A stretch of 64,000 nucleotides of DNA from Chrysogorgia sp. JL179-B06 (Eukaryota > Cnidaria > Anthozoa > Scleralcyonacea > Chrysogorgiidae), in contig JAYKKM010000044.1 of assembly GCA_035772405.1 (NCBI GenBank), positions 526,001-590,000 on the forward strand, in the 5' to 3' direction. This document shows, piece by piece, positions 39,584-50,794 of the stretch. The first letter of the stretch is position 1, and the number at the start of each line of letters is the position of its first letter. The notes below the pieces were generated by a model. That model worked only from the letters and a program-made list of their open reading frames with translations. It searched no databases and was not told the DNA's origin. Position numbers and translations under genes: made by a program.

Positions 39584-42500
39584 TTAAGGTGTCTTTTTGA
39601 GGCCATTCTTTTTCCAATCGTCGCATGTCTAAAAACAGAACAAAAATTTCATAATCAATGGTTAATCATGTCGACTAATTTTCAAGTTTTATTAAGGGCT
39701 GTTTACGTGAATCCGGATTGAGTTTCATTCGGAATTGAACTCATACCGGTTCTGTTAAAATCCCTTTAGGTGTTTACATGAATCCGGAATGAGATGCAGC
39801 TCAATCCAGATTGAGTTCATTCCGGTTCTCATTCCTGATTGAGTTTCATTCCGGATTGAGTTTCATTGAAATTTCATTCCGGTGTCATGTAAAGGCGGTG
39901 CGAGATTTCATTCCGGAATGAAAAATACGACCTAGAAGACTATAAATATTCTAAATACTACCATAACTGTAATGGTTTTTTGTTGTTGTCCTTGTCGTTT
40001 TGGGAGTTGGAAAAGTATATTGTGATTATTATTGCAAGATTTGGGAGGAAATATTTCATTCGGAAATGTTGTGTTGGCACCCACCAATTGTGGCAGCATT
40101 AAATTAAATTTGAGAGACAACCATTTCATTTACCTGTGAGTCAATGACACTTTGAATTGCTGGTAAAGAAAGGTCGACCAGCTTTAACGCGTATATAAGA
40201 CCAGCCGTAGCGCCCAACGCGCAGTGTGCGCCAAACACCTTGTTTTTATCCTCGTCGCTGATTGGACCACAGCTTGGTAAGATGGTGTCACACTGCGCAA
40301 TCACTTCATTTACAGTCGCCAAGGGTAGGCCCAGGTTCTTTACGATCTTGCTGGTGGAGAAGGTTTTGCATTTGCTTTGGTCGCAGATCTCTTTTTTCTG
40401 CGCAGTCGTAACGACGCATTTTTGTACGCATTTATTGGCGATAGTATCGGCGACCGTAGGTTTGGGTAATCTCACTTCCTTCTCGATATTCGCTGAACTC
40501 TCTCCCTTGCAGAAATGTAAAGTACAGATTTTCGCCAGCTGATCTGCTCGTACACTGCATATGGCACAGGTCTTTATGATATCATTCACCTGACTCACTA
40601 AGAGAGCAACGCTTTTGGCAATATCTTCCGGGGTTTCGTAAAGACAGTAAAGATTACAAGTGTCGATTCTGCCTTTCGGTGTGATCTCTGGAGGTGGGCA
40701 TCTTGTAAGGAAGTTCCTCACCATGTCTTCATTCAACGCCGACTTGTTGACGCGTGTGACAATCTGCGGCGGTGTGTAGCCCTTGAGCTTCTCGCCGCAA
40801 ACGCGAATCAGCAGATCACGATCGTTAAGCAAACAGTTGCTGTACCAGCTTTGGTTTTGCGCAGTTTGATTAACTAAGTTAAAGAATTCCGCTGACGTCG
40901 TATAAGGTACCATCTTTTTATCCACGCACGCTTTTCTGTTCAACTTGAATTTCGACTCGGCGTCAGCATAAAGTGCGCTGTATTGCTCCTTTCCGAGTCG
41001 GCAGTCCTTCAGCACAATCGCGATCGCGTGGATCTTGTCTGCAAGGCAAGCGAATTCGAATTCGATAGTTCCCAATGCCGCTATTAGTTTATTTTGCAAA
41101 GACATCGTGGCGGAAACACCAGCTGGTTTAATATTATCGATGAAATTTTGAATGGTATTAGCGGCTGCAATGTTCTTTGTATTAGCTCCCAAGGTGAGAT
41201 TTTTTATGCCATCCAGCCAACCAGTGAAGGTGTCGTTTTCCACCAAGTCTTTGACTGGTCGCCATGCCTAAAAGTGAGATAGATAGAGAGATAGATAGAT
41301 ATACTTTATATATATGAGATAGATAGATAGATAGATAGATAGATAGATAGATAGATAGATAGATAGATAGATAGATAGATAGATAGATAGATAGATAGAT
41401 AGATAGATAGATAGATAGATAGATAGAGAGAGAGAGAGAGAGAGAGAGAGAGAGAGAGAGAGAGAGAGAGAGAGAGAGAGAGAGAGAGAGAGAGAGAGAG
41501 AGATAGAGAGATAGAGAGATAGAGAGATAGAGAGATAGAGAGATAGAGAGATAGAGAGATAGAGAGATAGACAGATAGACAGATAGACAGATAGACAGAT
41601 AGACAGATAGACAGATAGACAGATAGACAGATAGACAGATAGACAGATAGACAGATAGACAGATAGACAGATAGACAGATAGACAGATAGACAGATAGAC
41701 AGATAGACAGATAGACAGATAGACAGATAGACAGATAGACAGATAGACAGATAGACAGATAGACAGATAGACAGATAGACAGATAGACAGATAGACAGAT
41801 AGACAGATAGACAGATAGACAGATAGACAGATAGACAGATAGACAGATAGACAGATAGATAGATAGATAGATAGATAGATAGATAGATAGAAATTTTATT
41901 TAAACACGGTGGTTCTATCAGAAATTAAGAATTACAAAAGTATAAAAATTAAATCTGGTCTACCTAGAAGCCGTGTATACAACTTAACAAAAAACAATAT
42001 TTACATATTTTTGTTCTTTTTAGTTTGATTATCTATTTACAACTATAATACAATTACTATAATACAGAGAAGCTACATATTGGAGCTATATATGGTTGTT
42101 GTCAATGCAGAAATCATGTCTTCTAATTTTCTGCTTAAATTTTGAGAAATAAAAGATAGATAGAAATAAAAGATAGATAGATAGATAGATAGATAGATAG
42201 ATAGATAGATAGATAGATAGATAGATAGATAGATAGATAGATAGATAGATAGATAGATAGATAGATAGATAGATAGATAGATAGATAGATAGATAGATAG
42301 ATAGATAGATAGATAGATAGATAGATAGACAGACAGACAGACAGATAGATAGATAGATAGATAGATAGATAGATAACCCCCCAAAAATCTTTTTACGAGT
42401 TTCAGTCAGCAGAAGTTATAGTTTAGTCGTCAGAAGTTATAATTTAGACGTGTACGGACAAGTAGAATCTTTTAGCACTTATCAGTTTAAATTAATTTCA

Positions 42501-50794: not shown

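What the first reader, a model, noticed from the sequence alone, without database searches (positions are those of the whole stretch)
39584..50794. Unrecognised secreted multi-domain protein with furin site, hydrophobic segments and Cys-armoured repeats
Nine exons join cleanly into a 782-aa protein with a signal peptide, an RQKRR site at 54-58 followed at once by a Gly/Ala-rich hydrophobic stretch, and two more hydrophobic segments separated by helical, amphipathic sequence. A Cys-rich repeat region follows. A proprotein site followed by a hydrophobic N-terminus suggests activation by cleavage. I cannot match the layout to any family I know.
Basis: partly seen in the sequence, partly recalled or inferred. 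Interest (0 to 1): 0.75.

Follow-up and report, generated by a model that had tools for sequence, protein, structure and literature searches.

The report
Soft-coral protein with stapled DNA-binding-type folds
A soft-coral gene makes a secreted-type protein with a conserved cutting site, whose cysteine-rich end is predicted to consist of five small helix-turn-helix modules, a fold normally used inside cells to bind DNA; the front half may touch or cross membranes, but what the protein does is unproven.

Summary
The gene is real. Minus strand, nine exons, 782 aa (exon 9 corrected), matched over 95-98% of its length by five proteins at 39-50% identity: one Paramuricea clavata, three Dendronephthya gigantea (octocorals), one unnamed. 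Two relatives are single ORFs on contigs of 3563 and 2552 bases, which I read as transcripts. Pfam gave no match above cut-off, Foldseek against PDB none at E<=0.001.

New here: (1) the Cys repeats are predicted as five Cys-stapled helix-turn-helix (HTH) modules (two of them cleanly in a second model); (2) the basic cleavage site is a conserved island in a fast-changing propeptide (86% against 24%, six sequences); (3) the stretch between hydrophobic segments 2 and 3 is basic, without Cys or N-glycosylation sequon in 7 of 7 proteins, as in a membrane hairpin; (4) one divergent paralogue in the same genome, read exon by exon, keeps the layout.

Best reading: a furin-type-processed, membrane-inserting protein with an extracellular HTH array for recognition. 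The mechanism is inference (0.36). The front half has no reliable model, and its hydrophobic segments are borderline.

The parts
50686..50794 (-). exon 1: signal-peptide-like start and first part of propeptide (aa 1-36)
   Evidence: start matched by P0001 and P0003
50500..50559 (-). exon 2: rest of propeptide and RQKR site (R54-R57 at 50509-50500, last codon completed in exon 3)
49104..49364 (-). exon 3: predicted mature N-terminus, hydrophobic segment 1 (aa 58-80, 49362-49294), five-Cys loop (C90-C113, 49266-49195), start of coil A
47395..47558 (-). exon 4: coil A with heptad pattern
46372..46545 (-). exon 5: end of coil A, FDKWTW motif (46479-46462), hydrophobic segment 2 (aa 230-248, 46452-46396)
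45099..45342 (-). exon 6: most of the basic loop (aa 249-326, begins in exon 5), first part of hydrophobic segment 3
43917..44074 (-). exon 7: rest of hydrophobic segment 3 (to 44052), coil B (aa 346-390)
40134..41267 (-). exon 8: helical domain aa 391-534 (41267-40836) and most of the HTH array
40698..40835 (-). Cys/HTH module 1 (aa 535-580)
40566..40700 (-). Cys/HTH module 2 (aa 580-624)
40428..40559 (-). Cys/HTH module 3 (aa 627-670)
40290..40418 (-). Cys/HTH module 4 (aa 674-716)
40134..40271 (-). Cys/HTH module 5 (aa 723-770, last Cys in exon 9)
39584..39628 (-). exon 9: 14 residues and stop

Best explanation
An octocoral family of proproteins that enter the secretory pathway. A furin-type protease removes a fast-evolving propeptide and frees a Gly/Ala-rich N-terminus (inferred from conservation, not shown). 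Coil A, the FDKWTW motif, hydrophobic segments 2 and 3 and coil B form an alpha-helical device that sits in, or inserts into, a membrane as a hairpin, with the basic loop on the far side (inferred). The C-terminal array of five Cys-stapled helix-turn-helix modules stays outside as a recognition or adhesion arm; the outer modules change fastest, as a target-binding tip might (inferred). The most likely action is cleavage-dependent membrane perturbation: pore formation or lysis for defence or prey, or membrane fusion. Gene model and predicted anatomy 0.85; action 0.36, lowered from 0.4 on checking because other windows of the protein are as hydrophobic as segments 1 and 3.
For: Gene model and full-length relatives. 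HSRxKR in 7 of 7 proteins that reach that far; 86% mean pairwise identity against 24% for the propeptide around it, six sequences. Coil A: heptad runs of 7-9 hydrophobic a/d positions in 7 of 7, reached by 46 of 5000 shuffles for the window's protein and 0-11 of 1000 for the six relatives; the stretch was chosen by eye. Loop between segments 2 and 3: net charge +9 to +15, 0 Cys, 0 sequons in 7 of 7 related proteins; shuffles expect 6.57 sequons in sum. The block with FDKWTW is 84% identical. HTH chains align at all five modules of the second model (545-588, 588-633, 637-679, 683-728, 734-783) and cleanly at modules 3 and 4 of the first. Identity falls from 64% (module 1) to 25% (module 5); P0005 carries extra modules. 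A paralogue at C389:994450-1002411 shows a signal-like exon ending in SRQRKS, joined in phase 1 (as here) to a Gly/Ala-rich hydrophobic exon, and frames for the later exons.
Against: No activity, localisation or expression data. Long stretches of the front half are below pLDDT 50 and no PDB fold was found for it. Hydrophobicity is borderline: segment 1 0.66-1.34, segment 2 1.31-2.09, segment 3 1.25-1.77, and C-terminal windows not proposed to cross a membrane score 1.53, 1.45 and 1.35. The positive loop fits a permanent two-pass membrane protein as well as a pore former. The two structure models share five sequences and are not independent; VIA Z stays below 8, and about ten of the 50 rows are long-helix proteins unrelated to HTH. 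The octocoral venom study PMC11896702 (section 3.4 and part 1 of 3.3 read) describes other cytolysins; its supplements were not seen.
Confidence: 0.36

Rival explanations
1. A permanent two-pass cell-surface protein: N-part and C-part outside, segments 2 and 3 as transmembrane helices, basic loop in the cytosol; the HTH array acts as an adhesion or self/non-self recognition ectodomain, and furin-type cleavage is ordinary maturation.
For: Charge, Cys and sequon distribution is that of a two-pass topology; fast-changing distal modules and variable module number suit recognition.
Against: Segments 2 and 3 fall short of clear transmembrane hydrophobicity in several members; no transmembrane predictor was run.
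Confidence: 0.3
2. A secreted structural or matrix protein (skeleton, mesoglea, capsule) cross-linked through its many cysteines.
For: 26 Cys, most of them invariant in the alignment, modular repeats, secreted-type start.
Against: Conserved hydrophobic segments, basic loop and conserved basic site are not needed for it. In PMC11959691 (skeletal proteome; only a word search of the main text) nothing matched the words used, which is weak.
Confidence: 0.14
3. A distant member of the jellyfish-toxin (CfTX/CaTX) family, whose front part has been likened to Cry toxin domain I.
For: Shared outline only (secreted, helical, hydrophobic segment); putative anthozoan members have been reported from sequence (passages of PMC8214413).
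Against: No accepted Pfam match and no such entry among the PDB sequence hits. A direct comparison was not made.
Confidence: 0.06
4. Wrong gene model: exons of different genes joined by eye.
For: No RNA-seq for this genome was available; exons 2 and 9 are not hit separately by relatives.
Against: Full-length relatives and single ORFs on short contigs.
Confidence: 0.02

Closest known systems
Uncharacterised octocoral proteins (Paramuricea clavata P0001; Dendronephthya gigantea LOC114517259, LOC114521592, LOC114517257)
   Same: Full-length homologues with the same cleavage site, hydrophobic segments and Cys modules
   Different: None carries a described function; LOC114517257 has extra modules
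Trihelical HTH domains of transposases and regulators (IstA, Tc3, Mos1, Pax, DeoR, LsrR, sigma factors)
Class I-type fusion proteins and alpha-helical pore formers (as kinds of mechanism; recalled, no call)
   Same: Basic cleavage site, hydrophobic new N-terminus, coiled coil, membrane segment
   Different: Segment 1 is weakly hydrophobic, the membrane part looks like a hairpin in mid-protein, no sequence or fold match found
CagY repeat region of Helicobacter pylori
   Same: Extracellular tandem short helical repeats with regular Cys and disulphides (passages of PMC2581425)
   Different: Repeat of 38-39 aa likened there to TPR, bacterial; no relation claimed

Membership tests
HTH (trihelical) fold, C-terminal modules | three-helix HTH core in the predicted structure | tested here: met
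   HTH chains aligned at each of five modules; cleanly at modules 3 and 4. Predicted, not solved; the two models share sequences. That the matched chain parts are HTH domains is recalled for some rows (RhlR, sigma factors).
HTH (trihelical) fold, C-terminal modules | significant sequence match to an HTH family | tested here: not met
   HTH_SB 19 bits against cut-off 43; of 24 modules scanned, 2 list HTH_SB at E<=1, best E 0.014. PDB profile: 8vd6 'CAP repeat' at E 1.1e-8 is a sum of five 6.9-bit pieces with i-E 66-69 each; a protein-design paper holds that code (PMC12339374, search listing only).
HTH DNA-binding proteins | nucleic-acid binding | not testable with these tools
   Module net charges -2 to +3 in the window's protein and a secreted-type start argue against it; no assay.
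furin-processed secretory proproteins | signal peptide plus conserved RxKR site | tested here: met
   at motif level; cleavage not shown; signal peptide judged by eye
two-pass or hairpin membrane proteins | two hydrophobic helices with a positive loop between | tested here: inconclusive
   charge, Cys and sequon pattern fit; hydrophobicity borderline, and other windows score alike
jellyfish toxins (CfTX/CaTX) | sequence or fold relation of the front part | tested here: inconclusive
   no match in Pfam or among PDB sequence hits; family not compared directly
alpha-helical pore-forming proteins | membrane insertion and pore | not testable with these tools
   no experiment
interferon gamma (weak profile hit) | significant local match | tested here: not met
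   whole-sequence E 6.8e-4 for a chain with two copies, best stretch i-E 0.16

The most novel reading that the evidence does not exclude
An octocoral machine in which a furin-type-activated helical hairpin inserts into target membranes (fusing or perforating them), steered by an extracellular array of Cys-stapled HTH modules: the DNA-reading fold turned into a secreted, expandable recognition arm, possibly taken over from a transposase, with the tip modules under fast change.
Probability: 0.14. Interest if true: 0.85.

Novelty: new variant of a known kind. Interest (0 to 1): 0.5.

Why it matters
If right, it adds a membrane-active or surface-recognition protein family to octocorals and shows the HTH fold used outside the cell as stapled tandem modules. 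It offers a small set of conserved features (RxKR island, FDKWTW, basic loop, five Cys modules) that can be tested one by one.

Tried and rejected
Chance or mis-joined exons: rejected. Interferon-gamma (whole-sequence E 6.8e-4; 7 of the 9 PDB sequences listed at E<=10): rejected, best stretch i-E 0.16. 'CAP repeat' 8vd6 (E 1.1e-8): five nearly equal 6.9-bit pieces; taken as an HTH-like pattern, not homology. Viral fold hits: 3 of 328 listed matches at E<=0.001, a phage endonuclease and two without names, TM-scores 0.08-0.21; read as HTH or helical pieces. Prokaryote or viral relatives: none confirmed among 36 pattern matches in genome contigs and 57 in viral contigs; two peptide patterns each, so weak evidence. 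Foldseek against PDB: 0 hits at E<=0.001 for both models. Among the 50 rows shown of each list I recognised no pore former, Cry-like toxin or fusion protein by title, but the front half was barely tested (notes). Own-genome search with exon 3 gave two further weak places (E 0.052 and 0.825) whose frames showed nothing of this layout; with exon 5 only the gene itself. Distribution: of eight distinct relatives four carry a species name, all octocoral; four have none. Only candidates sharing exact words were scored (7996, 7990 and 843), and known relative P0004 was missed, so absence from other cnidarians is not shown. NCBIfam, PHROGs and PADLOC were not searched. Papers: the searches listed no paper that I recognised as describing this family or secreted stapled HTH arrays; I looked only at listings, and at parts of four papers (PMC11896702: outline, passages, section 3.4, part 1 of 3.3; PMC8214413, PMC11959691, PMC2581425: passages). 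Subscription papers and supplements were not searched.

Full report
What is there. The finding lies on the minus strand of a 64 kb window of a 781 Mb genome in 522 contigs. Nine exons, 50794-50686, 50559-50500, 49364-49104, 47558-47395, 46545-46372, 45342-45099, 44074-43917, 41267-40134 and 39628-39584, join with GT/AG borders and fitting phases into 782 aa (exon 9 corrected). RQKRR is at 54-58.

Is it real. A search of 5.8 billion proteins gave five relatives of 783-905 aa at 39-50% identity over 95-98% of the query: one of P. clavata, three of D. gigantea, one without a species name. Both species are Octocorallia, Malacalcyonacea. Two further searches added P0006 and the exon-8-like ORFs P0007 and P0008: eight in all. 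P0003 and P0006 are 806- and 791-aa ORFs on contigs of 3563 and 2552 bases, which I read as transcripts; this argues that the exons belong together. The window's organism is therefore most likely an octocoral (inference).

Anatomy. Signal-like start; a propeptide at 24% mean pairwise identity; the site HSRQKR at 86%; hydrophobic segment 1 at 40%; a loop with five Cys; coil A; a block with FDKWTW at 84%; hydrophobic segment 2; a basic loop; hydrophobic segment 3; coil B; a helical domain; five Cys modules (identities from six sequences). Coil A has heptad runs of 7-9, reached by 46 of 5000 shuffles for the window's protein and by 2, 3, 1, 2, 11 and 0 of 1000 for P0001-P0006. The loop has net charge +9 to +15, no Cys and no sequon in 7 of 7, while shuffles expect 6.57 sequons in sum; the sequences are related, so this is nearer one observation than seven. 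Hydrophobicity over 19 residues: segment 1 0.66-1.34, segment 2 1.31-2.09, segment 3 1.25-1.77. Against a membrane reading: in the window's protein three windows of the C-terminal part score 1.53, 1.45 and 1.35, above segment 1 (1.34) and about equal to segment 3 (1.38).

Paralogues. The same genome has eight further places matching the start of exon 8 at 25-30% identity, four on C31 and four on C389; three of the C31 places have an identical matched stretch. I read one of the eight exon by exon (C389:994450-1002411) and one in part (C389 at 1054374-1065473); the other six were not read. The first shows one signal-like exon ending in SRQRKS, where this gene has two exons, with a donor in phase 1 and a phase-1 acceptor for a Gly/Ala-rich hydrophobic exon with a Cys cluster, then a helical exon, a hydrophobic exon, and exons matching 6, 7 and 8. 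The profile supports its exons 7 and 8 (E 6.2e-5 and 2.6e-35); the earlier exons are my reading of frames and splice signals. In the second, exon 8 has E 8.7e-36, while exons 6 and 7 are weak (0.016 and 0.87).

Function. A conserved basic site before a Gly/Ala-rich N-terminus, a coiled coil and a basic-loop hairpin point to a membrane-inserting or membrane-anchored device; the module array, with identity falling 64, 59, 51, 35, 25% from module 1 to 5 and a variable module number (P0005), points to recognition at its tip. Pore formation, fusion and plain two-pass anchoring are not told apart.

Against known kinds. No Pfam family above cut-off; PDB sequence hits below 0.001 were interferon gamma (rejected) and a repeat protein summed from 6.9-bit pieces. 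The octocoral venom study PMC11896702 (section 3.4 and part 1 of 3.3 read) describes aerolysin-like, actinoporin and saposin-like proteins among its cytolysins. PMC8214413 (passages) notes putative anthozoan jellyfish toxins without proteomic support. In what I read, neither describes this protein.

Limits. No species name, no RNA-seq, no model coordinates, three protein searches, no signal-peptide or transmembrane predictor, and a genome search that did not complete for the paralogue query.

Noticed in passing
window:41277-41891 and 42154-42375: Long AGAC/AGAT microsatellite arrays in the intron before exon 8; the first begins ten bases from that exon's acceptor, an odd place for an expandable repeat.
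   Followed up: no
window:40000-40095: The first ~96 bases of the query match 39 other listed places in the genome at 82-92% (a lower bound): a dispersed repeat in the last intron.
   Followed up: no
window:60678-62924: Single ORF of 749 aa with ankyrin and armadillo repeats.
   Followed up: partly
window:30429-33288: Exons of a kinesin motor protein, plus strand (Pfam Kinesin and Microtub_bd).
   Followed up: partly
window:22316-22774: Minus-strand frame matching 60KD_IMP (Oxa1/YidC type), 37 bits against cut-off 35.
   Followed up: partly
window:8339-8611: TPR-repeat frame.
   Followed up: partly
window:24397-24469, 47098-47172, 51540-51611, 60041-60111: Four tRNA matches; the three weaker ones may be tRNA-derived repeats, the one at 47098 lying inside an intron of this gene.
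   Followed up: no
L012, L013, L014 (G000:C31): Three paralogue copies with an identical matched stretch, about 30 kb apart: recent duplication or an assembly effect.
   Followed up: partly
P0005 (Dendronephthya LOC114517257): Extra Cys modules at the C-terminus; a second register matches the window's array at 35%, so modules may duplicate as blocks.
   Followed up: partly
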